A model generated the notes under the pieces. That model saw only the letters and a list, made by a program, of their open reading frames with translations. It was not told the DNA's origin and made no database searches. A stretch of DNA of 64,000 nucleotides from Pseudorhodoferax aquiterrae (GTDB taxonomy: Bacteria > Pseudomonadota > Gammaproteobacteria > Burkholderiales > Burkholderiaceae_C): positions 62,001 through 126,000 of the forward strand of contig NZ_BMYK01000002.1 of the NCBI RefSeq assembly GCF_014652235.1. The letters run 5' to 3'. Below, one piece after another: positions 29,332-49,958 of this stretch. The translations under genes and the position numbers were made by a program. The stretch's first letter is position 1. Each line of letters opens with the position of its first letter.

Positions 29332-30371
29332 ACGGCATCGAATTTCGCAACGTCACCAAGCGCTACGGCACGGACGCCAGCGCGCCGCTGGCCGTCAAGG
29401 GCATCAGCTTCGAGGTGCCGCAGGGCACGCTGACCACCATCCTGGGCCCTTCGGGCTGCGGCAAGACCACCACGCTGCGCATGATCGCGGGGCTGGAGTC
29501 GCCGACCGGCGGCCAGATCTTCATGGGCGGGCGCGACGTGACCACGCTGGGCCCGGGCGAGCGCAACGTCTCGATGATGTTCCAGAGCTATGCGCTGTTC
29601 CCGCACATGAACGTGGTGGAGAACGTGGCCTACGGCCTGCGCATGGGCGGCATGGCCAAGCCCGAGGCGGCGGCACGCGCGAGCGATGCGCTCAAGGGCG
29701 TGGGTCTGGTCGGCTTCGACACACGGCTGCCCAGCGAGCTCTCGGGTGGCCAGCAGCAGCGCGTGGCACTGGCCCGCGCGCTGGTGCTGGAGCCCGCCGT
29801 GCTGCTGTTCGACGAGCCGCTCTCCAACCTCGACGCGCGGCTGCGCCGCGAGATGCGCGAGGAGATCCGCGCGATCCAGCAGCGCCTGCAGCTCACGGTG
29901 GCCTATGTCACGCACGACCAGAGCGAGGCGCTGGCAGTCTCGGACCAGATCATCGTGATGGACCACGGCGTGATCGCCCAGCGCGGCACGCCCGAGGAGC
30001 TGTACAGCCGGCCGCAGAGCGAGTTCGTGGCCGGCTTCATGGGCGAGGCCATGGTGTTCCCGGCCGAGGCCCGGGCCGATGGCCAGGTCGCGCTGGGGCC
30101 GCTGCGGCTCACGCCCAGGCACCCGGTGACAGCCGGCCCGGTCAAGGTGGCCGTGCGGCCCGAAGCCTGGCAGATCGGTGCGCCGGGCGGCCTGCCCGCT
30201 ACGCTGCGCAAGGCGGCCTACCTGGGCGGCTTCTACGAGTACGGCTTCGAGACGCCGCTGGGCCCGGTGTTCGTGGTGTCGTCCGACCTGGAGCGCGTGC
30301 TCGCGCCGGGCGCGGAGACCGCGCTGGGCCTGGGCCGGCACGGCGTGTCGGTGGTGCGACAGCCGGGCTGA
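29328..30371 (+). CDS. ABC transporter ATP-binding protein, FbpC-like
   Basis: This 347-residue ATPase shows Walker A (GPSGCGKTTT, about residue 39), Q-loop (FQSYALFPH), signature LSGGQQQRVALARAL, Walker B LLFDEPLSNLD and the H-loop histidine in VTHDQ. Residues about 240-347 form a C-terminal TOBE-like regulatory domain. It energises the permease at 27118-29331. The C-terminal domain and the double permease place it in the iron/putrescine/phosphonate importer group. Confidence 0.92.
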   Translation: MNGIEFRNVTKRYGTDASAPLAVKGISFEVPQGTLTTILGPSGCGKTTTLRMIAGLESPTGGQIFMGGRDVTTLGPGERNVSMMFQSYALFPHMNVVENVAYGLRMGGMAKPEAAARASDALKGVGLVGFDTRLPSELSGGQQQRVALARALVLEPAVLLFDEPLSNLDARLRREMREEIRAIQQRLQLTVAYVTHDQSEALAVSDQIIVMDHGVIAQRGTPEELYSRPQSEFVAGFMGEAMVFPAEARADGQVALGPLRLTPRHPVTAGPVKVAVRPEAWQIGAPGGLPATLRKAAYLGGFYEYGFETPLGPVFVVSSDLERVLAPGAETALGLGRHGVSVVRQPG

Positions 30372-30406
30372 AGCGCGCGGCCACGGCCCCTTTCGAGAAC
30401 ACCGCC

Positions 30407-31036
30407 ATGCAGGACTACTACGCCGCCCGCGCACGGGAATACGACCGCATCTATGCCAAGCCGGAGCGCCAGGACAACCTGCGCCGCATGGAGTCCTGGC
30501 TGCCCGGCGTGCTGGCCGGGCGCCGCGTGCTGGAGCTGGCATGCGGCACGGGGTACTGGACGCGGTTCTATGCCGCCGCCGCGCAGAGCGTGCTGGGCAT
30601 CGACAGCGCGCAGCAGACCCTGGACATCGCCCGTGCGCGCCTGCCGTCCAGCGTCCAGCTGCTGCAGGGCGATGCCTACCGCCTGCCCCAGTTCGATGCG
30701 CCCTTCGACGCGGCCTTCGCCGGCTTCTGGTGGTCGCACATCCCGCAGCGGCGCATCGCGGGGTTCCTGCACGGTCTGCATGCCGCGCTGCAACCGGGCG
30801 CCAGGGTCGTGTTCATGGACAACCGCTTCGTGCCGGGCAGCAGCACCCCGGTGGCCGAGCGCGATGCCGATGGCGACAGCTTCCAGCTGCGCACGCTGGA
30901 CGATGGCTCGGTGCACCGCGTGCTCAAGAACTTCCCGTCCGCCGAGGCCTTGCTGGCCGCCGTCGAACCCTTTGCGGCCCAGGCCAGCTACCACCAGTGG
31001 CGCTTCTTCTGGGCGCTGGAGTACACGCTGCGCTAG
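30407..31036 (+). CDS. SAM-dependent class I methyltransferase
   Basis: This 209-residue protein has the SAM-binding motif VLELACGTGYWTRFYA (residues about 45-60), an acidic residue ending strand two (VLGIDSAQ) and motif FAGFWWSHIP near strand four. It is a small type-11/25 methyltransferase with no extra domain. The substrate is not evident. It follows the ABC ATPase after 35 bp and could be read through from that operon, or be independent. It ends 12 bp from the convergent outer-membrane protein gene. Confidence 0.8.
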   Translation: MQDYYAARAREYDRIYAKPERQDNLRRMESWLPGVLAGRRVLELACGTGYWTRFYAAAAQSVLGIDSAQQTLDIARARLPSSVQLLQGDAYRLPQFDAPFDAAFAGFWWSHIPQRRIAGFLHGLHAALQPGARVVFMDNRFVPGSSTPVAERDADGDSFQLRTLDDGSVHRVLKNFPSAEALLAAVEPFAAQASYHQWRFFWALEYTLR

Positions 31037-31048
31037 CAGCGCGCCCGT

Positions 31049-32140
31049 TCAGAAACTCTTGCTGACCCGCAGCTGCGAGTAGGTGCCGTTTTTGGCGTTG
31101 CGCGACTGCACGGTGGCCATGTGCTGCAGCGTGAGCACCACGTCCAGCACCGGGACGCGCGTGGTCCAGAACAGGCCGGCATTGGTGGACCGGTAGCGGC
31201 TCGGGCCCCAGCGGTTGTTGCGGTCGTCCTGGAACTGCTGGACATGGACCACGTGCACGCCGATCGGTCCCAGGCGCGTCATGGTCCCGGCCGCGCCCTC
31301 CAGGCTGGCCCAGTTGCCGCTGCGCAGGTCGTTGTCGCGGTTGCGCGTGTTCAGGCCCACGGTGACGCGGCCCGCCAGCGCGATGTCGGGCCGCGGCAGA
31401 TAGACCAGCTGGGCCGCGGGCCGCAGCGTGTAGAAGTTGCCGAAGCCGACGTCGGGGCCCGAGGCCTCGCTGTAGCGGCCCGTCGGCAGCACCAGCGAGG
31501 CCCCGGCCAGCACGCGCAGCTGGTCCGTGGCATGGCGCCAGCCCGCGTGCAGTTCCATGTCGCCGATGCCGGACACGCGGCCGCCCTCGGCCGCCGCCAT
31601 GGAGGCCACGGTGTTCTGGAACTGCGTGTCGAAGCCGGCCTGCACGGCCGCCTGCGTCGCCGCAGGCACGGCCGGGTTCCAGTTCAGCGTCGGCGCGGTG
31701 GCCTGTGCGCCGAAGCCCTGCTTCTTGATGCCGTACGGCAGGTTCATGGCCAGCGCCAGCCGGCCGCCGCCATAGCGTGCCGCGCTGAGCCAGGCCAGGC
31801 CCAGGTTCCACTGCACGAGCGAGCCGCGCGCTTCGATGACGCCGGTGGCCGGGCCATACGTCGGGTACAGCGCCGCCGGTGCGGGTGCCGGCAACGGCAG
31901 CGTGCCGCCTGGCAGGGTCTGCGTGAGCCGCTCGCCGTCGTTGCCCGTGATCTTGTGGATGTCCACGCGCGTGAGCGCGATGCCGCCCGTCAGGCCCTGC
32001 AGGTCGGGCGGCGCGAAGATCTCGCCCCCCAGGCTGCCGGCCAGGTTGTAGCGCACCTGGAAATCCTCGCCGGCCTGGGCCGCGGGGAGCGCGGCGATGG
32101 TGCAGGCGAAGGACAGCGTGAGCCGGGCGATGGCGTTCAT
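31049..32140 (-). CDS. Outer-membrane beta-barrel protein, MetA-pathway phenol degradation family
   Basis: This 363-residue protein has a signal peptide (MNAIARLTLSFACTIAALPAAQA) and a chain of alternating beta-strands ending in SQLRVSKSF. The terminal phenylalanine is the hallmark recognised by the BAM machinery. The repeated strand pattern (SLVQWNLGLAW, LRVLAGASLVLPTGRYS) matches the SphA/phenol-MetA-degradation barrel family, implicated in passage of small hydrophobic compounds. It is the last minus-strand gene after the hut block but is separated from the preceding gene by 135 bp that show no clear signal. Its cargo is unknown. Confidence 0.75.
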   Translation of the reverse strand: MNAIARLTLSFACTIAALPAAQAGEDFQVRYNLAGSLGGEIFAPPDLQGLTGGIALTRVDIHKITGNDGERLTQTLPGGTLPLPAPAPAALYPTYGPATGVIEARGSLVQWNLGLAWLSAARYGGGRLALAMNLPYGIKKQGFGAQATAPTLNWNPAVPAATQAAVQAGFDTQFQNTVASMAAAEGGRVSGIGDMELHAGWRHATDQLRVLAGASLVLPTGRYSEASGPDVGFGNFYTLRPAAQLVYLPRPDIALAGRVTVGLNTRNRDNDLRSGNWASLEGAAGTMTRLGPIGVHVVHVQQFQDDRNNRWGPSRYRSTNAGLFWTTRVPVLDVVLTLQHMATVQSRNAKNGTYSQLRVSKSF

Positions 32141-32275
32141 GGTGGTGGGCGTGGGTGCGGACGAAGAAGGCGCGGCACCTTAGCACCGGGTTGCAATTTG
32201 TCACATCGTCTGTCGCCGGCGAACGACAACCCCGATCAACAACCAGGCGCGGGTGTGTGCGACACCCCTGCGGAA

Positions 32276-32827
32276 TCAGGCCTGCGGGCTGCTGCGCCGC
32301 TGCAACATGTACAGGGCCGGACCATCGGGCGTGGCGACCACGCCGATGCGCTGGAAACCCGCTTTCTCGTAGCAGCGGATTGCGCGGGCGTTGTCCGGTG
32401 CAGGATCGGTCTGCACGGCGCTGACCAGCGGATCGCCGAACAGTTGCGCCACGAGCGTGCGCACCAGCCGCGTGCCCAGGCCCTGGCCCAGCAACGCGGC
32501 ATCGGCGATGGACTGGTCGATGCCGCGCACGCCGGGGTCGGTCTCGTCCTCCCACCAGCCGCCGCCCGCGCCCATCGCCACGTAGCTCTGCGCATAGGCA
32601 AAGGGCACGTCGTCCAGCAGGCCGATCCAGGGCGTGACGCGCTCGGCGGCCAGGGCCTGCAGGTCGTACTGCTCCCGCACCTCGGCCCAGGACGGCCGTG
32701 CACCGCCCCACCAGCGCACGATGTGCGGCCGGTTGAGCCAGTCGTGCAGCAGCGGCAAGTCCTGCGCAGTCATGGGACGCAGGCACACGCTCGGGGGTGG
32801 CAGGGAGCACATGGTCTGCGAGGGCAT
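32276..32827 (-). CDS. GNAT acetyltransferase closely resembling aminoglycoside 6'-N-acetyltransferase AAC(6')-Ib
   Basis: This 183-residue protein has the GNAT acetyl-CoA loop QGLGTRLVR (115-123). From memory of AAC(6')-Ib it matches through the aminoglycoside pocket: LNRPHIVRWWGG, EQY, YAQSYVAMG, GGWWE, ETDPGVRGIDQ, IRCYEKAGF and TPDGPALYM. The tryptophan pair at 91-92 and D168 correspond to the positions changed in the quinolone-active cr variant; both are in the unmodified form here. It has no integron or attC context, follows hisC-like after 42 bp and matches the region in composition, so it looks chromosomal. Its native substrate may not be an aminoglycoside. Confidence 0.8.
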   Translation of the reverse strand: MPSQTMCSLPPPSVCLRPMTAQDLPLLHDWLNRPHIVRWWGGARPSWAEVREQYDLQALAAERVTPWIGLLDDVPFAYAQSYVAMGAGGGWWEDETDPGVRGIDQSIADAALLGQGLGTRLVRTLVAQLFGDPLVSAVQTDPAPDNARAIRCYEKAGFQRIGVVATPDGPALYMLQRRSSPQA

Positions 32828-32869
32828 TGCGGCATCATGCCGCAGACGCCATGCGGCCAGGGCCGCAGG

Positions 32870-33985
32870 CTACGCCGCCAGCGCCGCGCGCAGCGCCTGC
32901 AGGCACCGCGCGTTGTCCTCGTCGGTGCCGACCGTGATGCGCAGGAACTGCGTGAAGCCGGGCTCCTTCCAGGGCTTGACGATCACACCGGCCGCCAGCA
33001 ACGCCTCGTTCACGGGGCCGTTGGGCCGCCCCAGGTCCACGAACAGGAAGTTCGTGGCCGAAGGCGCCACGCGCAGGCCCAGGGCCTCGATCGCCTGCAG
33101 CATGCCATCGCGCTGCACCACGGTGCGCGCCACGGACTGGCGCATGTGGGCTTCGTCTTCGAGCGCGGCGCGCGCGGCCAGCTGGGCGGCGATGTTCACG
33201 CCGAAGGGCGTGCGCACGCGGTCCAGCAGTTGCACGAGTGCGGCATCGCAGGCGATGCCGTAGCCCACGCGCAGCCCGGCCAGGCCCCAGGCCTTGGAGA
33301 AGGTGCGCAGAACGATCCAGGCGCCGCCCCAGTCGCGCAGCATGGGCAGCGCATCGGGAAAGCCCGGCGTGAGGCGCGCGTACTCCACATAGGCCTCGTC
33401 GACGACCAGCAGCGTGCCGGCCGGCGTGGCATCGAGCAGCCGCGCGAAGGCGGCGGTGTCGAACAGGCAGCCGACCGGGTTGGAGGGATTGGCCAGCATC
33501 GCGATCTTGGGGCCGCGCGCGAGCGCGGCGCACCAGGCGTCCACGTCGAAGCCAAGCGCGGGCGTGAGGTCCAGCAGCTCGACTTCGGCGCCCATCATGC
33601 GCGGGTAGATCTCGTGCAGGCCGAAGGCCGGGCGCTGCGTCAGCACGCGCTCGCCGGGCGAGAGCAGCGCCAGGCAGAGCATGTGCAGGATGGACTCGGA
33701 GCCGTTGCCCACGACGATCTGGGCGGGCGTGGCGCCGCTGCGGCGTGCCAGCGCCTCGCGCAGGGCCTGGCTGTCCGCGTCCGAGTACCAGTGCACCTGC
33801 TGTGCCAGGCCGGCCAGCGCCTCGGCCACGCGCGGGCTGGGGCCGTAGGGGTTCTCGTTGCTGCCCAGCCGCGCGATGCGGTCCACGCCATAGCGCGCGC
33901 GCACGGCTGCGGACGAGAGGCCGGCGTTGTAGACCGGCAGCGGCGGCACCTCGGGGCGGGCCAGTGCGAGGATCTCGGATGCCAT
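32870..33985 (-). CDS. hisC: Histidinol-phosphate aminotransferase-like class II aminotransferase
   Basis: This 371-residue fold-type I PLP enzyme has LGSNENPYGPSP near the N-terminus (typical of HisC), D196 in VVDEAYVEY, and the Schiff-base lysine K231 in RTFSKAWGLAGLRVGYG. HisC normally moves the amino group between histidinol phosphate and glutamate in histidine biosynthesis, and many homologues act on aromatic amino acids or histidine. Here it ends a histidine-degradation operon, one base after the FAD dehydrogenase stop, with no other his gene present. A role in converting imidazolyl-pyruvate to histidine is therefore more likely than biosynthesis, but this is inference. Confidence 0.85.
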   Translation of the reverse strand: MASEILALARPEVPPLPVYNAGLSSAAVRARYGVDRIARLGSNENPYGPSPRVAEALAGLAQQVHWYSDADSQALREALARRSGATPAQIVVGNGSESILHMLCLALLSPGERVLTQRPAFGLHEIYPRMMGAEVELLDLTPALGFDVDAWCAALARGPKIAMLANPSNPVGCLFDTAAFARLLDATPAGTLLVVDEAYVEYARLTPGFPDALPMLRDWGGAWIVLRTFSKAWGLAGLRVGYGIACDAALVQLLDRVRTPFGVNIAAQLAARAALEDEAHMRQSVARTVVQRDGMLQAIEALGLRVAPSATNFLFVDLGRPNGPVNEALLAAGVIVKPWKEPGFTQFLRITVGTDEDNARCLQALRAALAA

Positions 33986-33986
33986 G

Positions 33987-35366
33987 TCAGTCGAAGATCT
34001 TTCCGGGGTTCATGAGGTTCAGAGGGTCGAGCGCCGCTTTCACGGCGCGCATGGCCGCCAGTTCGGCCGCTGTGCGGCTGCGCTCCAGATAGGGCTTCTT
34101 GTGCAGGCCGATGCCGTGCTCGGCCGAGACGCTGCCCGCGAAGTCGCCGACCAGTCCGTAGACCAGCTGTTCCAAGGCCTCCACCTCGCCGCCGATGGTC
34201 GACGCATCGGTGGAGACATGCAGATTGCTGTCGCCGATGTGGCCGAAGAACACGCTGGCATGGCCGGGCCAGCGCGCGTCGAGCGCGGCGCGGCAGGCGA
34301 TCGCGAAGCGGCCGATCTCGGCCATGGGCAGGCTCACGTCGAAGTTGACGGGCGGGTGCATGTTCGTGGGCAGCTCGGCCGTGGCCTCGCGGATCTTCCA
34401 GAACGCACGTGCCTGGGCTTCGGACTGGGCGATCGCGGCGTCCAGCACCAGGCGCTCCTGCAAGGCGGGGGCCAGCACGTCCTCGAGCGCGGTCTGCAGT
34501 TGGGCCGCATCGGGGCCGTCGAGGTCGACCAGGGCCAGCAGCGGGTGCGGCGCATCGAAGGGCTCGCGCAGCTGTTGCCAGGCGAGCGAGGCCTGCACGA
34601 AGTCGCGCCACATGAGTTCGAAGGCCGCCAGGCCCGCGCCGGCACGCCGCTGCAGGCGCGCCAGCAGCGCGAGCGCGGCCTCGTAGTCGGCCACGGCGGC
34701 CAGCATGGTCGTGCGGGCGCTGGGTGCCGGATGCAGGCGCAGCAGCGCGCGCGTGACCACGCCCAGCGTGCCCTCGGCGCCGATGAAGAACTGCTTGAGG
34801 TCGTAGCCCGTGTTGTTCTTCTGCATGGGGCGCAGCATGGGCAGCACGGACCCGTCGGCCAGCACCACCTCCAGGCCCAGCGTCTGCTCGCGCATCATGC
34901 CGAAGCGCAGCACACCGTTGCCGCCTGCGTTGGTGGCCAGCGCGCCGCCGACCTGGGCCGAGCCACGCGCGCCGAAGTCCACGCCGAACAGCAGGCCCTG
35001 GGCGGCCGCGGCTTCCTGGATGGACTGGACGGTGGCGCCGGCCTGCACCGTCAGCGTGCGCGTGGCGGCGTCCACCTGTTCGATGGCCTGCATGCGGTCC
35101 AGCGACAGGGCCACACCGTGCGCCAGCGGTTGGGCCGCGCCAGCCAGCCCGGTCATGCCGCCCTGCGGCACGACGGGCACGCGGTGCTGCATGCACAGCT
35201 GCAGTGCGGCGCTGACCTGCTCCGTGCTGCGCGGGCGCAGCAGCGCGAGCGGGCGCACGGGCGGCACGCCGCTCCAGTCCGTCAGCCGGTGCGCGGGGAT
35301 GGCCTCGCCGGTCGCAACGGCGTCGTCGCCCAGCGCCGCGCGCAAGGCGGAGAGCAGCGCGCTCAC
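33987..35366 (-). CDS. FAD-linked D-2-hydroxyacid dehydrogenase (GlcD/D-2-hydroxyglutarate dehydrogenase family)
   Basis: This 459-residue protein has the PCMH FAD-binding fold (VPQGGMTGLAGAA, then ARGSAQVGGALATNAGGNGVLRFG) and the C-terminal metal/substrate domain with FFGHIGDSNLH and SAEHGIGLHKK. The family oxidises D-lactate, glycolate, D-2-hydroxyglutarate and similar acids. The start is GTG 35366, fixed by a four-base GTGA overlap with hutG. It lies between hutG and the hisC-like gene in the hut operon, pointing to a hydroxy acid linked to histidine such as imidazolyl-lactate. A paralogue is encoded at 56271-57695. Confidence 0.85.
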   Translation of the reverse strand: MSALLSALRAALGDDAVATGEAIPAHRLTDWSGVPPVRPLALLRPRSTEQVSAALQLCMQHRVPVVPQGGMTGLAGAAQPLAHGVALSLDRMQAIEQVDAATRTLTVQAGATVQSIQEAAAAQGLLFGVDFGARGSAQVGGALATNAGGNGVLRFGMMREQTLGLEVVLADGSVLPMLRPMQKNNTGYDLKQFFIGAEGTLGVVTRALLRLHPAPSARTTMLAAVADYEAALALLARLQRRAGAGLAAFELMWRDFVQASLAWQQLREPFDAPHPLLALVDLDGPDAAQLQTALEDVLAPALQERLVLDAAIAQSEAQARAFWKIREATAELPTNMHPPVNFDVSLPMAEIGRFAIACRAALDARWPGHASVFFGHIGDSNLHVSTDASTIGGEVEALEQLVYGLVGDFAGSVSAEHGIGLHKKPYLERSRTAAELAAMRAVKAALDPLNLMNPGKIFD

Positions 35367-36181
35367 CGTGGCGCTTCGGCGAAGTCGAGCACGGCCTGCA
35401 GCATGCGTTGCAGGTGCGGCTGCACGCCGGCCGCCACGGCCGGCAGGTAGTCGAAGGGCAAGGCCTCCTGCATGTAGCTGCTCTGCGTCATCTCCAGCTG
35501 CACGGCGTGCTGGCCGTCCTGCGGCCGGCCGTGGTGGCGCGTGATGTAGCCGCCCGTGAAGCGGCCGTTCAGCACGCTGGTGTAGCCAGCAGCGTCCTTG
35601 GCAATGGCCAGCAACCGCTCCGCCAGAACCGGGTCGCAGCTGGCGCCCTGGGCGGTGCCCAGGTTGAGGTCGGGCAGCTTGCCCTCGAAGAAGCGCGGCA
35701 GCACGGAGCGGATCGAATGCGCGTCCCACAGCATGGCGATGCCGTGCTCCGTCTTGATGCGCGCGAGCTCCTCGGCCAGCTTGGCGTGGTAGGGGTGCCA
35801 GATGGCGTCGCGGCGCGCGGCGATCTCGGCCGCGCCGGGCTGGTCGGCCACATCCCCGTAGACGGGCGTGTCGTCGAAGGTGTCGACCGGGCACAGGCCC
35901 GTCACGCTCTGGCCCGGGTACAGGCTCGCGCCGTCCGGCGGGCGGTTCAGGTCGATCACGTAGCGCGAGTGCGTGGCCACGAGCACCGAGGCGCCCAGCG
36001 CATCGGCGAAGTCGTACAGCCGCTCCAGGTGCCAGTCGGTGTCGGGCACATGGCGCGCCTCGGCCGTGAAGCGCGCGGCCAATGCGGGCGGCACGTGGGT
36101 GCCGACATGGGGCATGGAGATGAGCAGCGGGCGGCTGCCCTGGCGGAAGCGGAACGGCGGTTCGGTGGTGGAAAAGCTCAT
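35363..36181 (-). CDS. hutG: N-formylglutamate deformylase
   Basis: This 272-residue amidohydrolase has LLISMPHVGTHVPP at residues 19-32 and WDAHSIRSVLPRFFEGKLPD, both typical of HutG. It splits N-formylglutamate into formate and glutamate, the last step of the pathway that runs through HutF. The start ATG 36181 overlaps the hutF stop (ATGA), and the end overlaps the FAD dehydrogenase start. This version of HutG acts on formylglutamate, in contrast to the unrelated formiminoglutamase given the same letter in some species. Confidence 0.93.
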   Translation of the reverse strand: MSFSTTEPPFRFRQGSRPLLISMPHVGTHVPPALAARFTAEARHVPDTDWHLERLYDFADALGASVLVATHSRYVIDLNRPPDGASLYPGQSVTGLCPVDTFDDTPVYGDVADQPGAAEIAARRDAIWHPYHAKLAEELARIKTEHGIAMLWDAHSIRSVLPRFFEGKLPDLNLGTAQGASCDPVLAERLLAIAKDAAGYTSVLNGRFTGGYITRHHGRPQDGQHAVQLEMTQSSYMQEALPFDYLPAVAAGVQPHLQRMLQAVLDFAEAPR

Positions 36182-37563
36182 GGGCTGTCCTTGAGAAGTT
36201 GGGTGCGGGCTGCGACCAGGCCGCGCCTGGCGTTCAGGTGCGCAGCATGGCGGCCGGCGCGCACGCGCGCCTGGCCGGCCACGTGGACGCTGCCGACCGC
36301 GCTCGTGCGGTGGCTCGCGAACACATGGGCCGACAGCATGTCGGCAGCCTGCAGGCCGGCCAGTGCCGGATGCTCTGCGCCCAGCGTCACGAAATCGGCC
36401 TGCTGGCCTGCGGCCAGCCCGGCCACCGGGCGGGCAGACGCCTGCGCGCCGCCGGCCACCGCGGCCAGGGTCATGGCGGTGGCGACCTGCGGCTGCGCGG
36501 GCGTCGCCATCACGTTGCGACGGCGCGTGGCCAGGCGCTGGCCGTATTCGAGCAGCATGAGTTCCTCGGCCGCGTTGACGCAGGCGTGGCTGTCCGAGCC
36601 CACGCCCCAGGCGCCGCCCGCGGCCTGCCAGGCCGGCCCGTCGAACAGGCCGTCGCCCAGGTTGGCCTCGGTGCTGGGGCACAGGCCGGCGACGGCACCG
36701 CTGGCGGCGGCGCGGCGGTATTCGTCGGCATCCATGTGCGTGGCGTGCACCAGGCACCAGCGCGCGTCCACGGGCGCATGGTCCAGCAGCCAGGCCACGG
36801 GGCGCTGGCCGCTCCAGGCGATGCAGTCATCCACCTCCTGGGTCTGCTCGGCGATGTGGATGTGCACGGGGGCCGTGGCGTCCTGCGCGTGCAGGCCGGC
36901 CACGGCCGCGCGCAGCGCATCGGGCGGCACGGCGCGCAGCGAGTGCGGCGCCAGGCCCAGGCGGGCACCCTGGGCGGCGCAGAGCGGGCGCAAGCGCTCC
37001 AGCAGGCGCAGCATGTTGTCGGTGGCGCGGATGAAGCGGCGCTGGCCCTCCCCCGGTGGCTTGCCGCCGAAGCCGCTGGTCTGGTAGAGCACGGGCAAGA
37101 GCGTGAGGCCGATGCCGGCCTGCTTTGCGGCGCGCAGCAGGGCCAGTGCGAGTTCGGCATCGTCGGCATAGGCCGCGCCGCCGCGGTCATGGTGCACGTA
37201 GTGGAACTCGCAGACGCTGGTGTAGCCGGCCTCCAGCATCTCCACGTACAGGCCAAAGGCGATGGCCTCGAGCAGGGCCGGGTCGAGCTTGTTCGCGAAG
37301 CGGTACATCAGCGTGCGCCAGCTCCAGAAACTGTCCTCGGCCGCGCCGCGGTACTCGGTCAGGCCGGCCATGCCGCGCTGGAAGGCGTGCGAGTGCAGGT
37401 TGGGCAGGCCGGGCAGCACGGGACCTTCGGCCTGCGCGACGCCTTCGGGGCGTGCGGCATCGGGCTGCACGTGCACGAGCGTGCCGGCCGCATCCCAGCG
37501 CAGCAGCACGTTGCGCGCCCAGCCTGCGGGCAGCAGTGCGTCGGCTGCGAACAGCGCGCTCAT
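36178..37563 (-). CDS. hutF: Formimidoylglutamate deiminase
   Basis: This 461-residue amidohydrolase has metal ligands H57 and H59 in [15 protein letters not shown], further histidines in VHIHIAEQ and a C-terminal GVGSDSH aspartate. It hydrolyses N-formimino-L-glutamate to N-formyl-L-glutamate and ammonia. Its presence with HutG shows that the five-enzyme hut route is used. It overlaps hutI upstream and hutG downstream by four bases each. Confidence 0.94.
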
Positions 37564-38777
37564 ACAGCGCCCTCTGCGATACGGCCTTGGCGCACGACCG
37601 CGCGCACCGGGCGCTGGCCGAACCAGTAGGCCAACTCGGCCGCGTCCTGCAGATCCCACAGCACGAAGTTCGCCGGGCGGCCGGCCGCGATGGCACCGTG
37701 AGAATCCTGCAGGCCCAGCGCGTGCGCCGCGTGCACGGTGATGCCGGCGATCGCCTCGGGCACCGTGAGCCGGAACAGCGTGCAGGCCATGTTGGCCATC
37801 AGCAGCAGGGACAGCGCCGGCGAGGTGCCGGGGTTGTGGTCGGTGGAGACGGCCATGGGCACGCCGGCGGCGCGCAGCGCCGCGATGGGCGGCAGCTGCG
37901 TGTCGCGCAGCGTGTAGTAGGCGCCCGGCAGCAGCACGGCCACCGTGCCGGCCGCCGCCATCGCGGCGACGCCCTCTGGCGACAGGTGCTCGATGTGGTC
38001 GCAGGACAGCGCGCCGTAGCGCGCGGCGAGCGCCGCGCCGCCCATGTCCGACAGCTGCTCGGCATGCAGCTTGACCGGGATGGAGAGGGCCTGCGCGGCC
38101 TGGAACACCTGCTCGGTCTCGGCCAGCGAGAACGCGATGCGCTCGCAGAACACGTCGACCGCATCGACCAGGCCTTCGGCATGCAGGGCCGGCAGCATCT
38201 CGCGGCAGACCAGGTCGGTGTAGTCCTGGCTGCGTCCTTCAAACTCCGGCGGCAGCGCGTGCGCGCCCAGGAAGGTGGTGCGCACGGTCACGCCGTGGGC
38301 AGCCGCCAGGCGCCGCGCCACGCGCAGCTGCTTGCGCTCGTGCGCGAGCGCAAGACCGTAGCCCGACTTGATCTCGATCGCGCAGACGCCTTCGGCCAGC
38401 AGGCTGCGCAGCCGCGCCGAGGCGCTCGCGAAGAGTTCGTCCTCGCTGGCCGCGCGCGTGGCGCGCACGCTGGAGACGATGCCACCGCCGGCTTTGGCCA
38501 CCTCCTCGTAGCTCGCGCCGGCCAGGCGCATCGCGAACTCGTTCGCGCGCTGGCCGCCATAGACCAGGTGGGTGTGGCAGTCCACGAGGCCGGGCGTGAC
38601 GAGCGCGCCCTGCCCTGCGTGGCCCGGCAGATCGGCACATTCGGTGGGCACGGCATCGGGTGCGCCGGTCCAGGCGATCCGGCCGTCCTGCACGGCGATG
38701 GCGCAAGGCTGGCCGTCCAGGCGCGTGAGGCCGGTCCACAGGCCGTCGGCCGAAGGCAGGGTGTCGAAAGAAGGCAT
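37560..38777 (-). CDS. hutI: Imidazolonepropionase
   Basis: This 405-residue amidohydrolase has H68 and H70 in [35 protein letters not shown] and [10 protein letters not shown] (metal aspartate). It opens the imidazolone ring of 4-imidazolone-5-propanoate to give formiminoglutamate. The start ATG 38777 lies eight bases after the hutD stop and begins the conserved chain; the frame upstream continues through hutD in another reading. The gene overlaps hutF by ATGA. Confidence 0.95.
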
Positions 38778-38785
38778 GGGGTTTC

Positions 38786-39358
38786 CTATCGGGCTGGATG
38801 CCATTGCACGGCCAGCAGGGCGGCGTCGGCGTCCGCGGTGTCGAGCGGCCAGCCCGTGGCGGCATCGCTCCACCACAGGCCCTGTCCGGGCGCGAGCGCT
38901 TCGCTGCCCGCGCGCCAACGGCCGCGCCAGGCCAGCAACAGGCCGTGCGCTGCGGCGGGCAGTTCCGCGCCACGGTGCAGCACATGGAGCGCGGCGCGCA
39001 GCCGGCCGCGCCGCGTCATCACGTTGAAGTCGCTGGAGGGGCCGCCCAGCAGCGTGCAATCGACGCGCGCGTCGCCGCTGAACGCGAAGGGTGCCAGCGG
39101 CGTGGCGAGGCGGTGCTCCAGGTCCTCTCCGTGCAGGCGCACGCCATCGCCCTCGAGCAGCGTGATGATGCGGTCCACGCCCGCAAAGGTCGAGAACGGG
39201 CCGCTGGCCGCGATGCTGGCGACCGAGACGCGCCAGTCGAAGCCCTCGAAGCCCGCACCGGGCGGCCAGCTCGCGATCTCGCGCGTGCTGCCGCCGCCGT
39301 TCTTCCAGGGCGTGGCAGGCAGGTCCGCCACGTCGAAACGCTGCACTGTGGAGCTCAT
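38786..39358 (-). CDS. hutD: HutD cupin family protein
   Basis: This 190-residue protein begins [30 protein letters not shown], the strongly conserved start of HutD (Ves family cupins). HutD is not an enzyme of the pathway; in Pseudomonas it has been proposed to limit over-activity of the hut operon. The double cupin fold spans the entire chain. The start ATG 39358 overlaps the stop of the amino-acid permease gene (ATGA), tying the transporter to the hut genes. Confidence 0.92.
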
Positions 39359-40023
39359 CGCACCAGCCCTCCCTGGCTCAAGCGCCGTTCGAAATGCCGC
39401 AGCACCAGCATCACGGTGCCGGTCAGCGCGAAGTACACGGCGGCGATCGCGAGGTAGACCTCCAGCGAGCGGTAGGACACGCTGATGATCTTCTGCCCCT
39501 CGTGCATCACGTCGTGGATGGTCAAGAGCGAGACCAGGGCCGAGTTCTTGATCAGCGCGATGAACTCGTTGCCCAGCGGCGGGATCATGCGCACCACGGC
39601 CTGCGGCAGGATGATGTGGCGCATGGCCGTGGGTGCCGTCATGCCCAGCGATTGTGCGGCCAGGGTCTGGCCCGGGGCTATGGACTGGATGGCGCCGCGC
39701 ACGATCTCCGACACATAGGCACCCGAATAGACGCCCAGGCCCAGCACGCCGCACAGGAAGGCCGGCAGCAGCAGGCCGAAGTGCGGCAGGCCGAAGAACA
39801 GGATGAACAGCTGCACCAAGAGCGGCGTGCCGCGCACCACCGTCACGTAGGCCGTGCATGCGGCGTAGAGCCAGCGGCGCTGCGGGTTCAGGCGGCCGAT
39901 GCCGACCACAAGGCCCAACGCGCAGCCCAGCAGCAGCGCGCAGACCGTGATCTCGATGGTGACCAGCGTGCCGCGCGCGAGCGCGTCCCAGCCGCCCCAG
40001 ACGGGGGAGAAGTCGAGGTCCAT
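39355..40023 (-). CDS. Amino-acid ABC transporter permease (His/Glu/Gln type)
   Basis: This 222-residue permease has about five membrane helices and the HisMQ-type signature. [19 protein letters not shown] lies near residue 62, and the ATPase-docking segment is [35 protein letters not shown]. It is coupled by overlap to hutD, so histidine or a related compound is the likely cargo. Its binding protein is probably the product of 40735-41469, which lies across a 711-bp gap filled by the inverted repeat. No ATPase gene of this class is present in the window. Confidence 0.9.
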
Positions 40024-40298
40024 GTCAGTGGTTCATGGAAAGAAGCGACGAGGGCCGAGCGAAGCGATGGCCCGGATGTGACCCCGCTCCCGGGACCCCT
40101 GTGCCCACGCCGAGGAGCGCAGTGGACTGGGCGGCGCGGGGAACCTCGCGCTTTGTGAACTGACTCATTGCACTTGTTCGAGCCGAGTGAACGCAGTGAA
40201 CGGTGCGAGTTGTGCAATGCGCCCAGGCCGCGAGCACCGCAGGTTGCCCGGAGCGCCAGCGGAGGGTCGGGGGCACCGGGGTCGCCCTTTCTTTGGTT

Positions 40299-40326
40299 AC
40301 TTTCTTTCGGCGAAACGAAAGAAAGT
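40299..40326. repeat. Hairpin in the left copy of the large inverted repeat
   Basis: ACTTTCTTTCG at 40299-40309 pairs perfectly with CGAAAGAAAGT at 40316-40326 around the loop GCGAAA. It is the AT-richest part of the unit. Confidence 0.8.
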
Positions 40327-40423
40327 GACTGCACTGCCGGGGGCATATCCCGGCCTCTGGTGCTTGTGCGATCACTACGTCTGATCGGAGTGAGGAGGTG
40401 GGGGCTTCACCCCCACACCCCGA

Positions 40424-40457
40424 CTTACTTTCTCTTGCTTCGCCAAGAGAAAGTAAG
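40424..40457. repeat. Hairpin in the right copy of the large inverted repeat
   Basis: CTTACTTTCTCTTG at 40424-40437 pairs perfectly over 14 bp with CAAGAGAAAGTAAG at 40444-40457 around the loop CTTCGC. It occupies the position equivalent to the left hairpin, but the stem sequence differs at several paired positions. Compensatory change of that kind suggests the structure is kept. Confidence 0.8.
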
Positions 40458-40734
40458 CAAAGAGAAGGCGACCCCGGTGCCCCTGTCCCTCCGCTAACGC
40501 TCCGGGCAACCTGCGGTGCTCGCGCCATGGGCTGCATTGCGCAACTCGCACCGTTCGCTTCGCTCACTACGCTCGAACAAGCGCAATGAGTCAGATGTTG
40601 AAGCGCGAGGTTCCCCGCGCAGCCCATGGCGCTGCGCTCCTCGGCAGAGGCACAGGGGAAACAGCCATTCGGGCCATCGCTGCGCTCGGCCTGGGACTCG
40701 GGCCTTCGCTGCGCTCGGCCTGCGCGCGCGCGCA

Positions 40735-41469
40735 TCATGGCGTGACCGGGAACCACTTCTTCACGATGGCCGCATAGCTGCCATCGGCCTTGAGCTTGGC
40801 GATCGCCTCGTTCACCGCCTTGGTCAGTTCGGGCGTGTCCTTGCGGATCGCCATGCCGTACTCCTCGGTCGTGAGCTGCTCGGGCAGCACCTTGAGGCCC
40901 GGGCGCGTGCGCACGTACTGGTAGGCGGCCGGCTTGCCCGTGACGGCGGCATCGCTGCGGCCCACGTCCACGAGGTTGAACATCTCCTGGTTCTTCTCGA
41001 CCTCGACGAGCTGCACCTTGGGATGGGCTTCCTTGAGGTAGCTCACCGACTTGGTGCCGACCTGCACGCTGACCTTCTTGCCGGCCAGGTCGGCCGGCGA
41101 CTTGATCGTCGCGTTGTCGGCCTTGACCATGGCGACCAGGCCGCCCGCGTAATAAGGATCGGTGAAGTCCACCACCTTCTTGCGTTCGTCGGTGATGTAG
41201 ATGGCCGACACGGCCATGTCCACGCGCTTGGAGACCAGGGCCGGGATCAGGCCCTTGAAGTCGATGTCCACCCACTCGACCTTGCGGCCCATCTGCTTGC
41301 CGATGGCCTCTACGAGCTCGGTGTCGAAGCCCGTGCGCTGGCCGTTCTCGAAGAACTCCATGGGCGGGAAGGTGGCGTCGGTGGCGACCTTGAGCACGGC
41401 CTGGGCGTGGGCGCCGAAGACGGCGGACGACAGCAGGGCCAGGGCGAGCAGATGGCGGCGAAGAGTCAT
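40735..41469 (-). CDS. Amino-acid-binding periplasmic protein (HisJ/GlnH family)
   Basis: This 244-residue protein has a signal peptide (MTLRRHLLALALLSSAVFGAHAQ) and a type 2 binding fold with LKVATDATFPPMEFFENG, then DIDFKGLIPALVSKRVDMAVSAIYITDERKKVVDFTDPYY, the canonical family signature. It should deliver a polar amino acid to the permease at 39355-40023. It follows the PhyH gene after 59 bp in the hut unit. Histidine is the favoured ligand by context. Confidence 0.88.
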   Translation of the reverse strand: MTLRRHLLALALLSSAVFGAHAQAVLKVATDATFPPMEFFENGQRTGFDTELVEAIGKQMGRKVEWVDIDFKGLIPALVSKRVDMAVSAIYITDERKKVVDFTDPYYAGGLVAMVKADNATIKSPADLAGKKVSVQVGTKSVSYLKEAHPKVQLVEVEKNQEMFNLVDVGRSDAAVTGKPAAYQYVRTRPGLKVLPEQLTTEEYGMAIRKDTPELTKAVNEAIAKLKADGSYAAIVKKWFPVTP

Positions 41470-41528
41470 GGGGTTTTCCGTGGGAAAGGTGAAGGAGCGA
41501 AACAGCTAGCAGGATCGGGGCCGGGTGT

Positions 41529-42374
41529 TCAGCCCACCAGGCGCGGGAACAGCGCATGGTCCATGGGTGCGCCGGCCGGCAGTTCGTCGGCCAGCCCTGG
41601 GAAGTCGGGTGAGGTGGTCCAGCGCCGCGGCGCATGGCGGATGTCGTCGCCCAGGAAGCGGACCGAGAACACGCGGCGGCGCTGCGTGCCATCCACGCCG
41701 GCGGCCGCGTGCAGGGTCAGCATGTGGAAGCAGACGAAGTCGCCCGGTGCGATGTCCCAGCCCAGGATGGGGAAGCGCTCGCGCGCTGCCTCGATGTCGG
41801 GCAGGTCCGCCAGGCTGCCTTCGGGGAACCACCTGGCCTGGTGGTCCATGAAGGTGCGCGGCATGAGCCAGGGGCCGCGGTGCGAGCCGGCCACGAACTC
41901 CAGCGTGGACGCGCGCGGCACCGGATCGACGGGGATCCACATGCTCACGTTCTGCATGCCGTCGATGTTGTAGTAGGGCTGGTCCTGGTGCCAGGGCGTC
42001 TTCTGCCGCGTGCCGGGCTCCTTGACCAGCAGGTGGTCGTGGTAGAGCCGCACTTCGCGCGATCCCATCAGGCGCTGGGCCAGCAGGGCCAGCGGCGTCT
42101 CGTGGATGAAGCGGCGGTAGGCGGCGATCTCCTGCCAGTTGCAGAAATCCTCGAAGAAGCGACCCGGGTCGTCGGGGCGGCTTGCCACCTTGCCGCGCGG
42201 GCTGGGCGCGGCAAGGTTCTGGGCTATGCCTTGCGCCAGCAGCGCCAGCTCATCGGCCGTCAGCAGCTGGCGGACGACGCAGGCGCCGTCGCGCTGGAAC
42301 TGCTCCACCGTCGCGTCGTCCACGCGCTCGGCGACGCGCCGGCGCAGCGTTTCGGTGTCGGGCAGGCCGGCCAT
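41529..42374 (-). CDS. Phytanoyl-CoA dioxygenase (PhyH) family protein
   Basis: This 281-residue protein belongs to the Fe(II)/2-oxoglutarate oxygenase family PhyH. The metal ligands are H129 and D131 in TPWHQDQPYYN and probably H222 in FHMLTLHAAAG, with arginines at 232-234 as candidates for 2-oxoglutarate binding. Such enzymes hydroxylate or demethylate small molecules. It lies three bases after hutU and before the amino-acid-binding protein gene, so it is part of the hut transcription unit. The standard pathway has no oxygenase. A methylated or otherwise modified histidine or imidazole is a plausible substrate, by context only. Confidence 0.85.
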   Translation of the reverse strand: MAGLPDTETLRRRVAERVDDATVEQFQRDGACVVRQLLTADELALLAQGIAQNLAAPSPRGKVASRPDDPGRFFEDFCNWQEIAAYRRFIHETPLALLAQRLMGSREVRLYHDHLLVKEPGTRQKTPWHQDQPYYNIDGMQNVSMWIPVDPVPRASTLEFVAGSHRGPWLMPRTFMDHQARWFPEGSLADLPDIEAARERFPILGWDIAPGDFVCFHMLTLHAAAGVDGTQRRRVFSVRFLGDDIRHAPRRWTTSPDFPGLADELPAGAPMDHALFPRLVG

Positions 42375-42377
42375 GGC

Positions 42378-44093
<1,716 letters not shown>

Positions 44094-44112
44094 GGCGGTC
44101 TCCTCGGGGTGT

Positions 44113-45666: not shown

Positions 45667-45674
45667 CGCATTTC

Positions 45675-45687
45675 CTGTCTATACAAG
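45675..45687 (-). promoter_or_regulatory. Probable HutC operator upstream of hutH
   Basis: CTGTCTATACAAG matches CTGTATATACAG at 49311-49322 in ten of twelve positions (TGTcTATACA core). It lies nine bases from the hutH start codon. HutC repressors of the GntR/HutC family bind TGTATATACA-like palindromes. Confidence 0.6.
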
Positions 45688-45695
45688 TACGGGCG

Positions 45696-45743
45696 AAAAA
45701 AACTCAGGCCAGGCACCTCCGTTGCGTTCTGCGAATGCAACGG
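45696..45743 (-). terminator. Possible terminator of the ABC-hutC transcript
   Basis: On the minus strand, a stem CCGTTGC (45743-45737) with GCAACGG (45725-45719), extended inside by TTC/GAA, is followed 16 bases later by seven consecutive T (45702-45696). The distance is longer than in a standard Rho-independent terminator, so the call is tentative. The remaining spacer up to hutC (45744-45818) also has CCCCGC/GCGGGG at 45787-45801. Confidence 0.35.
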
Positions 45744-45818
45744 TCGCGCTGGTCGGTGCCCCAGCGGCATTCGCGCTGGCGTCGATCCCCGCTGCGCGGG
45801 GCCCCTCGCCGCGTGCGC

Positions 45819-46595
45819 TCATGCAAGCCCCTGGTTCCCATCGTTGCGCAGCCGGCTGCCCAGCCGGTAGCGCGAGGCCGGGTGCAGGCAGCGCACCAGC
45901 GTTATGGTCTGGCCGCGCGCCCAGGTGCGGCGCGTCAGCAGCAGGCAGGGTTCGGCCTGGTCCATGGCCAGGCGCTCGGCCTGCTCGGGCGTGGGCAGCA
46001 CCGCGTCCACGAGGTGCTCGATCTGGTCGAACGGCACGTTGCGCACCAGGTACTCGCTGGGCGGCATGGCCGAGAAGTCCTGCTCGAGGAAGGCCGGCAC
46101 GAGGCGCGGGTTCACGTAGCGGTCTTCCAGCTGCACGGGCACGCCGTCCTCCAGGTGCAGGCAGACGCAGTGCACCAGGGATTCGCCCATGCGCACGTCC
46201 ATCCAGACCGCGACATCGGGCGAGGCCGCCACGCGCTCGGCGGCGAGCAGCTGGAAGCCGTAGTCGTGGCCGCGGCCGCGGATCTCGCTGGCGATGTTGG
46301 CGATCTGCAGCAGCGTGGACTGCGGCTTGGCCTCGGCCACGAAGCTGCCCACGCCGGCCACGCGCACGACGCGGCCCTGGTCCATGAGCTCGCGCAGCGC
46401 GCGGTTGGCCGTCATGCGCGAGATGCCGAACTGCGCCACGAGTTCGTGCTCGGACGGCAGCCGGTGCCCGGCCGGCCACTCACCGCTCTGGATGCGGCGC
46501 GTGATGTGCTCCTTGACCTGCTCGTACAACGCCAGCGCGGGCGCCGCATCGGAGTGCGCGGGCGTGCGGCGGGTGGTCGCGGAGGCGGGCTTCAT
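45819..46595 (-). CDS. hutC: Histidine utilization repressor, GntR/HutC family
   Basis: This 258-residue protein has a winged helix-turn-helix at about residues 20-90 (LYEQVKEHITRRIQSGEWPAGHRLPSEHELVAQFGISRMTANRALREL) and a UTRA ligand domain at about 100-245. HutC senses urocanate and releases the hut promoters. The gene is the last of the ABC importer operon (1 bp after the ATPase stop) and lies directly upstream of hutH on the same strand. Two matching palindromes, at 45675 and 49311, would let it control both the enzymes and the importer plus itself. ATG 46595 gives the usual N-terminal length. Confidence 0.93.
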   Translation of the reverse strand: MKPASATTRRTPAHSDAAPALALYEQVKEHITRRIQSGEWPAGHRLPSEHELVAQFGISRMTANRALRELMDQGRVVRVAGVGSFVAEAKPQSTLLQIANIASEIRGRGHDYGFQLLAAERVAASPDVAVWMDVRMGESLVHCVCLHLEDGVPVQLEDRYVNPRLVPAFLEQDFSAMPPSEYLVRNVPFDQIEHLVDAVLPTPEQAERLAMDQAEPCLLLTRRTWARGQTITLVRCLHPASRYRLGSRLRNDGNQGLA

Positions 46596-46596
46596 C

Positions 46597-48242: not shown

Positions 48243-48246
48243 CGCT

Positions 48247-49209: not shown

Positions 49210-49310
49210 GCGGCCCTCCTGGTTGGGGTTGAACGCTTCGGAACGCGGGCAGCGCCGGTACACCCCGGGGCAAGGGCACGCGCCGCGCAGTCTCATTCGC
49301 CTGAGCAGAC

Positions 49311-49322
49311 CTGTATATACAG
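49311..49322 (-). promoter_or_regulatory. Perfect HutC-type palindrome upstream of the ABC importer-hutC operon
   Basis: CTGTATATACAG is a perfect 12-bp palindrome about 100 bp upstream of the binding-protein start. A second palindrome, CCCCAATTTGGGG, lies upstream at 49339-49351. On the minus strand TTGGGG could serve as -35 with TATATA inside the operator as -10 (about 19-bp spacing), which would explain repression. The promoter boxes are tentative; the palindrome is plain. Confidence 0.7.
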
Positions 49323-49487: not shown

Positions 49488-49498
49488 TGGAGGTTTCC

Positions 49499-49952: not shown

Positions 49953-49958
49953 CTGGCT

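What the first reader, a model, noticed from the sequence alone, without database searches (positions are those of the whole stretch)
32870..35366. Possible imidazolyl-lactate/imidazolyl-pyruvate entry route attached to the hut operon
The last two genes of the hut unit are an FAD-linked 2-hydroxyacid dehydrogenase and a HisC-like aminotransferase, joined to hutG by a 4-bp overlap and to each other by a 1-bp gap. Neither is part of the classical pathway. Together they would oxidise imidazolyl-lactate to imidazolyl-pyruvate and transaminate it to histidine, which HutH then degrades. I recall that growth on imidazolyl-lactate has been described for a relative formerly called Pseudomonas testosteroni, but the genes behind it are, to my knowledge, not established.
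Basis: inference. Interest (0 to 1): 0.72.

Follow-up and report, generated by a model that had tools for sequence, protein, structure and literature searches.

The report
Imidazolyl-lactate entry genes in hut operon
Two genes at the end of a bacterial histidine-degradation operon probably turn the histidine-like hydroxy acid imidazolyl-lactate back into histidine so that it can be eaten, which would give genes to a pathway described in 1969.

Summary
In detail: hutG, an FAD-linked 2-hydroxyacid dehydrogenase and a HisC-like aminotransferase overlap or abut as stated. It belongs to a 56-row clade (support 100/100) apart from the 51 other HisC-like rows compared; 39 of 56 have a hut gene within about 10 kb and 30 of 56 an FAD 2-hydroxyacid dehydrogenase within 300 bp. 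In distant bacteria other oxidase types accompany the aminotransferase. The dehydrogenase keeps the head-binding and catalytic residues of human D-2-HGDH but none of its four C5-carboxylate residues. Correction: the pathway was reported in Pseudomonas (now Delftia) acidovorans in 1969 with an NADP oxidoreductase (title). Two genomes with a 97-98% match to porin Omp32, which I recall as a Delftia protein, hold the pair inside hut. This FAD family should prefer the D-isomer. Against: the dehydrogenase persists beside hutG or hutF-hutG in three genomes without a hutH hit, and 17 of 56 clade members show no hut gene. No activity was tested.

The parts
32870..33985 (-). HisC-like class I/II aminotransferase; proposed imidazolyl-pyruvate:glutamate (histidine) aminotransferase
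   Evidence: NF003496 545.7 bits, cut-off 540; clade-wide H124, K337, W339; clade support 100/100; a hut gene within about 10 kb in 39 of 56
33987..35366 (-). FAD-linked 2-hydroxyacid dehydrogenase (FAD_binding_4 + FAD-oxidase_C); proposed imidazolyl-lactate (probably D-) dehydrogenase
   Evidence: (catalytic residues kept, C5-carboxylate residues of D-2-HGDH replaced)
35363..36181 (-). hutG, N-formylglutamate deformylase
   Evidence: TIGR02017 357.8 bits, cut-off 278.75
36178..37563 (-). hutF, formimidoylglutamate deiminase (start codon inferred)
   Evidence: TIGR02022 584 bits, cut-off 413.05 (given 36178-37569)
37560..38777 (-). hutI, imidazolonepropionase (start codon inferred)
   Evidence: TIGR01224 468.5 bits, cut-off 298.15 (given 37560-38813)
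38786..39355 (-). hutD (start inferred)
   Evidence: PF05962 179.2 bits (given 38786-39394)
39355..40023 (-). amino-acid-type ABC permease
   Evidence: PF00528
40735..41469 (-). amino-acid-type solute-binding protein
   Evidence: PF00497
41529..42374 (-). PhyH-family oxygenase, role unknown; homologues recur near this aminotransferase
   Evidence: PF05721 91.9 bits
42378..44093 (-). hutU, urocanate hydratase
   Evidence: TIGR01228 937.2 bits
44113..45666 (-). hutH, histidine ammonia-lyase
   Evidence: TIGR01225 667 bits
45676..45685 (.). candidate HutC operator, one mismatch to TGTATATACA, just upstream of hutH (that consensus is recalled)
45819..46595 (-). hutC-like repressor gene (read by eye, not family-scanned; start inferred)
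   Evidence: recurs at the head of hut clusters

Best explanation
The two genes form a feeder into histidine degradation. The flavoprotein oxidises imidazolyl-lactate, most likely the D-isomer, to imidazolyl-pyruvate, passing electrons from FAD to an acceptor that is not known. The aminotransferase then moves the amino group of glutamate (the end product of hut) onto imidazolyl-pyruvate to give L-histidine, which HutH, HutU, HutI, HutF and HutG break down. Shown here: gene identity, order, recurrence with hut, a separate clade for the aminotransferase, residue changes in both proteins, a separate hisC in the genome. Inferred: the substrates, the D-stereochemistry, the direction of flow and regulation by HutC.
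For: (a) 39 of 56 clade members have a hut gene within about 10 kb (37 hutH, U or I) and 30 of 56 have an FAD 2-hydroxyacid dehydrogenase within 300 bp on the same strand. (b) In 399 family genomes the aminotransferase (24) co-occurs with hutH in 23 and with the dehydrogenase in 18, all 18 adjacent (Fisher p 6e-6 and 3e-18, not corrected for relatedness). (c) Three clusters pair them with hutC, hutH and a transporter and show no hutU, I, F or G in the stretch read, though hutH is near the end of each stretch (L048, L087, L092). (d) Other oxidases beside or near the same aminotransferase: an FAD enzyme with a GlcD/D-lactate-dehydrogenase-like pocket plus an FMN_dh in the Komagataeibacter and Gluconobacter hut clusters (L081, L084), FMN_dh without FAD enzyme in L104 and L109, a D-amino-acid-dehydrogenase-like protein plus a RidA-family protein in Pseudomonas L088. 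(e) Dehydrogenase keeps R326/H376/H383/E416/H417 but has A330, N341, F374, S385 where human D-2-HGDH has T390, K401, Y432, N443; in the close group read, N341, F374 and S/T385 hold throughout and A330 in all but one (T, L159). (f) Aminotransferase: H124, K337 and W339 in 56 of 56 clade rows; the 51 others have Y (48) or F (3), R (50) or K (1), and no W. (g) Another intact hisC beside hisD. (h) Two genomes with a 97-98% match to porin Omp32 (recalled as Delftia) carry the pair inside hut; Delftia acidovorans is where the 1969 title places the pathway.
Against: No activity data. The 1969 title names an NADP oxidoreductase, not a flavoprotein. 6 of 24 family genomes have the aminotransferase without a dehydrogenase hit; 13 of 31 have a dehydrogenase hit without the aminotransferase: three of these are of another type, ten have the pocket signature (L159 with T for A330), six beside hut genes and four not. 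Genomes G093, G323 and G546 have no hutH hit at E 1e-100 yet keep the dehydrogenase beside hutG or hutF-hutG. 17 of 56 clade members show no hut gene in the stretch read (some stretches are short); 11 of 56 show neither a hut gene nor an FAD dehydrogenase. Relatives at 54% identity sit on enterobacterial plasmids (context not read). The aminotransferase passes NCBIfam's histidinol-phosphate transaminase models TIGR01141 and NF003496. K337 is not diagnostic: this genome's own hisC beside hisD also has K there. The two own hisC genes sit on long branches of the tree, so their place is unsure. The 0.7-kb repeat may separate the transcripts.
Confidence: 0.55

Rival explanations
1. The aminotransferase is the imidazolyl-pyruvate/histidine aminotransferase, but the feeders and the natural substrate differ: modified imidazole acids (for example N-methylated or otherwise substituted imidazolyl-lactates or pyruvates) are trimmed by the oxygenases that recur nearby and then oxidised and aminated.
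For: A PhyH oxygenase sits in the window operon and homologues recur near the aminotransferase (L052, L055, L058, L060, L081, L091, L111); 2OG-FeII oxygenases near the dehydrogenase in L048 and L081 (Pfam) and, by eye, L087, L090, L111; a VanA-type Rieske oxygenase beside the aminotransferase in L091 and L096 and, by eye, L070, L094, L097, L100.
Against: The oxygenases are of different families, and no PhyH hit is seen in several loci that keep the core pair (for example L054, L056, L057).
Confidence: 0.17
2. The aminotransferase runs as a histidine:2-oxoglutarate aminotransferase that drains histidine to imidazolyl-pyruvate, and the dehydrogenase only recovers the imidazolyl-lactate formed as overflow.
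For: Aminotransferases are reversible; the activity named in the 1969 title is histidine-2-oxoglutarate aminotransferase.
Against: HutH in the same cluster already removes histidine; a flavin dehydrogenase of this family normally oxidises the hydroxyacid (PMC7801405 passages, for D-2-HGDH).
Confidence: 0.1
3. The dehydrogenase is not coupled to the aminotransferase; it acts on a metabolite of the hutF/hutG end of the pathway or on an unrelated 2-hydroxyacid.
For: It stays beside hutF-hutG in G323 and G546, which have no aminotransferase hit and no hutH hit; four signature-type copies lie outside hut.
Against: When both are present in the family sample they are adjacent in 18 of 18; the pair moves together within hut (between hutI and hutF in L043, L057, L060, L066, L067, L069, L078; after hutG in L051-L056).
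Confidence: 0.1
4. A redundant histidinol-phosphate aminotransferase and a general D-2-hydroxyacid dehydrogenase that happen to lie in hut.
For: Passes TIGR01141 (286.2, cut-off 276.55) and NF003496 (545.7, cut-off 540); the own hisC beside hisD shares K at position 337.
Against: Another hisC beside hisD; separate clade; changed residues at 124 and 339; recurrence with hut; two paralogues with the T/K/N pocket pattern of D-2-HGDH elsewhere in the genome (L011, L012).
Confidence: 0.08

Closest known systems
Imidazolyl-lactate degradation in Pseudomonas (Delftia) acidovorans and P. (Comamonas) testosteroni (Coote and Hassall 1969, 1973; titles only seen)
   Same: Same proposed conversions: imidazolyl-lactate to imidazolyl-pyruvate to histidine, then hut; two genomes identified by porin Omp32 (recalled as Delftia) carry the gene pair in hut
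   Different: The 1969 dehydrogenase is NADP-linked and the 1973 title names the L-isomer; here a flavoprotein of a family known for D-2-hydroxyacids. No genes were attached to those activities in anything I could read
Histidine transaminase (EC 2.6.1.38), discussed as an orphan activity in PMC4084501 (passages) and given for Delftia acidovorans in PMC6567437 (passages)
   Same: Proposed activity of the aminotransferase
   Different: The earlier sequence candidate (TTE2137) lies in a his biosynthesis operon and was disputed there; this one lies in hut
Histidinol-phosphate aminotransferase HisC (TIGR01141)
   Same: Same Pfam family and above the curated cut-off
   Different: Separate clade, hut context, H at 124 and W at 339 where the 51 comparison rows have Y/F and no W
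Human D-2-hydroxyglutarate dehydrogenase (PDB 6lpn) and its GlcD/LDHD paralogues
   Same: Sequence similarity over residues 17-457; head-binding, metal and catalytic residues conserved
   Different: All four residues that bind the C5 carboxylate of D-2-HG are replaced; far below the GlcD curated cut-off (257.6 against 567.9)

Membership tests
Histidinol-phosphate aminotransferase (HisC) | Curated profile TIGR01141 score above cut-off | tested here: met
   286.2 against 276.55
Histidinol-phosphate aminotransferase (HisC) | Gene in or needed for histidine biosynthesis | tested here: not met
   Context only: it lies in hut; another intact hisC lies beside hisD at G000:C3 and a further HisC-like gene at C5. 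Need for growth not testable here
Histidinol-phosphate aminotransferase (HisC) | Residues conserved in the other HisC-like rows (Tyr at 124, Arg at 337) | tested here: inconclusive
   H124 and K337 here; 48 of 51 and 50 of 51 other rows keep Y and R, but the one with K is this genome's own hisC beside hisD. That these residues bind histidinol phosphate is recalled
NCBIfam NF003496 (PRK05166) | Curated score above cut-off | tested here: met
   545.7 against 540. Of 7 clade members scanned it is the best model for all 7 and passed by 3 (window, L043, L057). The family's printed name rests on annotation
Histidine transaminase EC 2.6.1.38 | Catalyses histidine + 2-oxoglutarate = imidazolyl-pyruvate + glutamate | not testable with these tools
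   No assay possible
NADP-linked imidazolyl-lactate oxidoreductase (Coote and Hassall) | Uses NADP | tested here: not met
   By family assignment only: Pfam finds FAD_binding_4 and FAD-oxidase_C and no NAD(P)-binding domain
D-2-hydroxyacid dehydrogenases of the GlcD/LDHD/D-2-HGDH group | Two Pfam domains and Arg/His/His/Glu/His active site | tested here: met
D-2-hydroxyglutarate dehydrogenase | C5-carboxylate residues Thr390, Lys401, Tyr432, Asn443 | tested here: not met
   A330, N341, F374, S385
Glycolate oxidase GlcD | TIGR00387 cut-off | tested here: not met
   257.6 against 567.9

The most novel reading that the evidence does not exclude
This aminotransferase clade is a general imidazolyl-pyruvate hub: bacteria attach whichever oxidase suits them (D-2-hydroxyacid, L-2-hydroxyacid or D-amino-acid dehydrogenase, perhaps diol or alcohol dehydrogenases and oxygenases) to one dedicated aminotransferase and so feed many histidine analogues, of either hand, into hut. 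Proteins now named histidinol-phosphate transaminase by NF003496 would be the missing histidine transaminase.
Probability: 0.4. Interest if true: 0.72.

Novelty: new variant of a known kind. Interest (0 to 1): 0.6.

Why it matters
Imidazolyl-lactate use through histidine was described in 1969 and 1973 (titles), and in 2014 the sequence candidate for histidine transaminase was still disputed (PMC4084501, passages). This locus names two concrete genes, with the pair also present in genomes that look like Delftia, and predicts which isomer the flavoprotein uses. It also suggests that proteins matching NF003496 carry the name of the wrong pathway. D- and L-imidazole lactate are treated as microbial-derived metabolites that inhibit urease, the D-form with antimicrobial activity too (PMC12583827, passages), so a route for consuming the D-form has some wider use.

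Tried and rejected
Delftia as the source of the window: tested with the Omp32 porin; best match 44% in the own genome, so rejected; genomes G133 and G484 matched at 98% and 97%. That Omp32 of PDB 1e54 comes from Delftia (Comamonas) acidovorans is recalled. Porin L174 gave no solved-structure match at E 1e-40.

Biosynthetic HisC: rejected because another intact hisC lies beside hisD and because of the tree. D-2-hydroxyglutarate as the dehydrogenase substrate: rejected on pocket residues and because paralogues L011 and L012 carry the T/K/N pattern. An RNA element or tRNA: none in the window at the thresholds used. Sigma-70-like promoters: none found by a weak scan of 32700-46800, which says little for this GC content. 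Phage records: one 92-base match only for window 30000-50000.

I used no structure-prediction job. Papers: Coote and Hassall 1973 and 1969 and Yamada 2012 are not held; I saw only titles in reference lists and a discussion of Yamada in PMC4084501. I saw no paper naming these two genes as a hut feeder in the listings (searches showed 40 of 121 and 15 of 36 papers); section 12 of PMC5343134 on the HutC regulon, read whole, does not mention them (its figure was not seen). This is not proof that it is unpublished.

Rows dropped: searches left out matches shorter than 250 and 230 residues. One search split rows at 42% identity; its 57 high rows include three repeats of a locus (L009, L079, L080) and its 55 low rows include two members of the clade (L095, L110). 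The repeats, L074 and the second L062 gene were dropped before the tree (107 rows), and recounts on the tree's 56 and 51 rows. The 56 include close relatives of the window (5 of its genus) and near-copies such as L088/L089. One search labelled 40 rows as hut-linked, one (L111) on a weak HutD match only; the stricter count is 39. I did not check the gene context of most of the 51 comparison rows. My note lists L103 among the Rieske clusters; I did not read its genes, so it is left out here.
Full report
Observation. The FAD dehydrogenase runs 33987-35366 on the minus strand and starts with GTG inside the end of hutG (4-base overlap); the HisC-like aminotransferase runs 32870-33985 after a one-base gap. 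Family scans give FAD_binding_4 + FAD-oxidase_C and Aminotran_1_2. The aminotransferase passes TIGR01141 and NF003496; the dehydrogenase passes no curated NCBIfam cut-off, its best score being GlcD at 257.6 against 567.9. The rest of hut lies upstream on the same strand: hutF, hutI, hutD, a permease, a solute-binding protein, a PhyH oxygenase, hutU and hutH, then a hutC-like gene read by eye. A perfect TGTATATACA lies at 49312 and a one-mismatch copy at 45676, just upstream of hutH; two further copies with two mismatches lie elsewhere, and shuffles average 0.97 matches. That this is the HutC consensus is recalled. A 0.7-kb palindromic interspersed repeat lies between the solute-binding-protein and permease genes; it gives 51 match rows in this genome, counted on both strands because it matches its own complement.

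A separate hisC exists. The next-closest HisC-like genes of the genome are 35% identical. The one at G000:C3 is an intact frame that passes TIGR01141 (287.3) and lies next to a hisD (518.2 against 243.8); a hisE-like frame, read by eye, lies 4-5 kb further on. The genome is not Delftia by the Omp32 marker (best 44%); its genus is unnamed here, with GC near 70%.

Recurrence. The aminotransferase was found in 7 of 200 genomes of the order, 24 of 399 of the family and 6 of 6 of the genus, the window's own genome included each time (E up to 1e-80). A maximum-likelihood tree puts 56 of them in one clade (support 100/100, branch 0.91) apart from 51 other HisC-like rows; two of the others are this genome's own hisC genes, whose long branches make their place unsure. 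Of the 56, 39 have at least one of hutH, U, I, F, G, D within 10.5 kb (37 have hutH, U or I), 32 have an FAD dehydrogenase there and 30 have one within 300 bp on the same strand; 11 have neither. Several stretches are cut by contig ends. Gene order varies: the pair follows hutG (window genus, L056), lies between hutI and hutF (L043, L057, L060, L066, L067, L069, L078), or sits with hutC, hutH and a transporter only, in the stretch read (L048, L087, L092).

Co-occurrence. In the same 399 family genomes hutH occurs in 214 (E up to 1e-100), the aminotransferase in 24 and the dehydrogenase at E up to 1e-126 in 31. The aminotransferase is with hutH in 23 of 24 and with the dehydrogenase in 18 of 24, adjacent in all 18. 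Fisher tests give 6e-6 and 3e-18, without correction for relatedness. The 13 genomes with a dehydrogenase hit but no aminotransferase were read over 15-20 kb: three are of another type; ten carry the pocket signature (nine exactly, L159 with T for A330), six of these beside hut genes and four not. In G323 and G546 (no hutH hit) the dehydrogenase stays beside hutF-hutG, and in G093 (no hutH hit) the pair stays beside hutG. These three cases are the main evidence against a strict link to histidine degradation; in G093 the pair could still supply histidine itself.

Different feeders, one aminotransferase. In Komagataeibacter (L081) and Gluconobacter (L084) the neighbouring FAD enzyme has the pocket pattern that PMC7801405 describes for GlcD and D-lactate dehydrogenases (F, then S or T, V, V), and an FMN-dependent dehydrogenase, best scored by L-lactate dehydrogenase models in L081 but below their cut-offs, lies next to hutH. 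In L104 and L109 an FMN_dh is present about 5 kb from the aminotransferase and no FAD dehydrogenase hit; a histidinol-dehydrogenase-family protein, a short-chain dehydrogenase and a zinc alcohol dehydrogenase lie near as well (Pfam in L104; in L109 by eye). In Pseudomonas brassicacearum (L088) a D-amino-acid-dehydrogenase-like protein (183 bits, cut-off 383) and a RidA-family protein are divergent from the aminotransferase, which is followed by hutC, a transporter, hutU and hutH. The common product of these unrelated oxidases, given the hut setting, would be imidazolyl-pyruvate. This is inference, but it is the argument that best ties the aminotransferase to that substrate.

Active sites. PMC7801405 (passages) gives the human D-2-HGDH residues: R386, H434, H441, E475, H476 hold the 2-hydroxyacid head and the metal; T390, K401, Y432, N443 hold the C5 carboxylate, and mutation of K401 abolished activity. 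By alignment the window enzyme has R326, H376, H383, E416, H417 and A330, N341, F374, S385. In the 23 close rows (51-93% identity; L067 and L079 are one locus) the second set is A, N, F and S or T. Two paralogues in the same genome carry T, K and N at those places (L011, L012). So 2-hydroxyglutarate is unlikely; an aromatic side chain is possible but not shown. For the aminotransferase, H124, K337 and W339 are invariant in the 56 clade rows; the 51 others have Y or F, R (50) or K (1), and never W. The single K is this genome's own hisC beside hisD, so K337 alone proves nothing. That the Arg and Tyr contact histidinol phosphate in E. coli HisC is recalled, not taken from a call.

Link to old biochemistry. 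[quoted passage not shown] testosteroni title likewise; neither paper is held. Pseudomonas acidovorans is now Delftia acidovorans and P. testosteroni is Comamonas testosteroni. Genomes G133 and G484 carry an Omp32 at 98% and 97% identity (the species of the marker is recalled) and hold hutI, the dehydrogenase, the aminotransferase, hutF and hutG in a row (L043, L057). So the lineage with the described pathway very likely has the pair inside hut. The named oxidoreductase was NADP-linked, so either another gene does that step on the L-isomer, or the flavoprotein serves the D-isomer; both can be true. PMC4084501 (passages) shows that an earlier gene candidate for histidine transaminase was disputed because it lies in a his operon.

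Verdict. The pathway is old; the genes, the flavoprotein variant and the wider set of feeders look new as far as the searches named here can tell.

Noticed in passing
window 40030-40730: About 0.7-kb interspersed repeat matching its own reverse complement at about 77%, 51 match rows (both strands counted; 40 of 128 candidates scored) in the own genome, several at contig starts; it lies between two hut transporter genes.
   Followed up: partly
window 41529-42374: PhyH-family oxygenase inside the hut operon, with homologues near the same aminotransferase in distant lineages (L081, L091, L111); possible extra feeder step.
   Followed up: partly
L091 8901-9971, L096 5526-6668, L070, L094, L097, L100: VanA-type Rieske oxygenase (Pfam-checked in L091 and L096, the rest by eye), often with a reductase, beside the aminotransferase, with or without hut genes.
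   Followed up: partly
L093 3443-4777, L102 3508-4833, L104 5638-7032, also L095, L105, L109: Histidinol-dehydrogenase-family protein (Pfam-checked in L093, L102, L104, the rest by eye), often with a short-chain and a zinc alcohol dehydrogenase, near the aminotransferase; three of the six loci also hold hut genes.
   Followed up: partly
L048 11622-12593, L081 13099-14055, L087, L090, L111: A second type of oxygenase (DIOX_N + 2OG-FeII_Oxy; Pfam-checked in L048 and L081, the rest by eye) recurs near the dehydrogenase.
   Followed up: partly
L085, L086, L098; plasmid records: Clade members (49-51% identity) in Streptomyces and a Pseudomonas without hut genes nearby, and 54%-identical relatives on enterobacterial plasmids (not fetched). 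Neighbours in L086 and L098 look like a MATE-type transporter and, in L098, a cysteine-synthase-like gene, by eye only.
   Followed up: no
L062 2399-3562: A second, distant class I/II aminotransferase (28% identity) lies between hutH and hutU; it falls below the TIGR01141 cut-off (246.8 against 276.55).
   Followed up: no
window 56274-57647: Paralogue of the FAD dehydrogenase (45% identity) with a different pocket pattern (S, S, Y at positions 330, 341, 374), about 10 kb beyond hutC.
   Followed up: partly
L060 7839-9181: The dehydrogenase matches in two pieces in different frames in this genome; read only as pieces.
   Followed up: no
NCBIfam NF003496: The equivalog named histidinol-phosphate transaminase is the best model for all 7 clade members scanned (passed by 3) and scores the own hisC genes far lower (154.6 and 203.5); its name is probably wrong for these.
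   Followed up: partly
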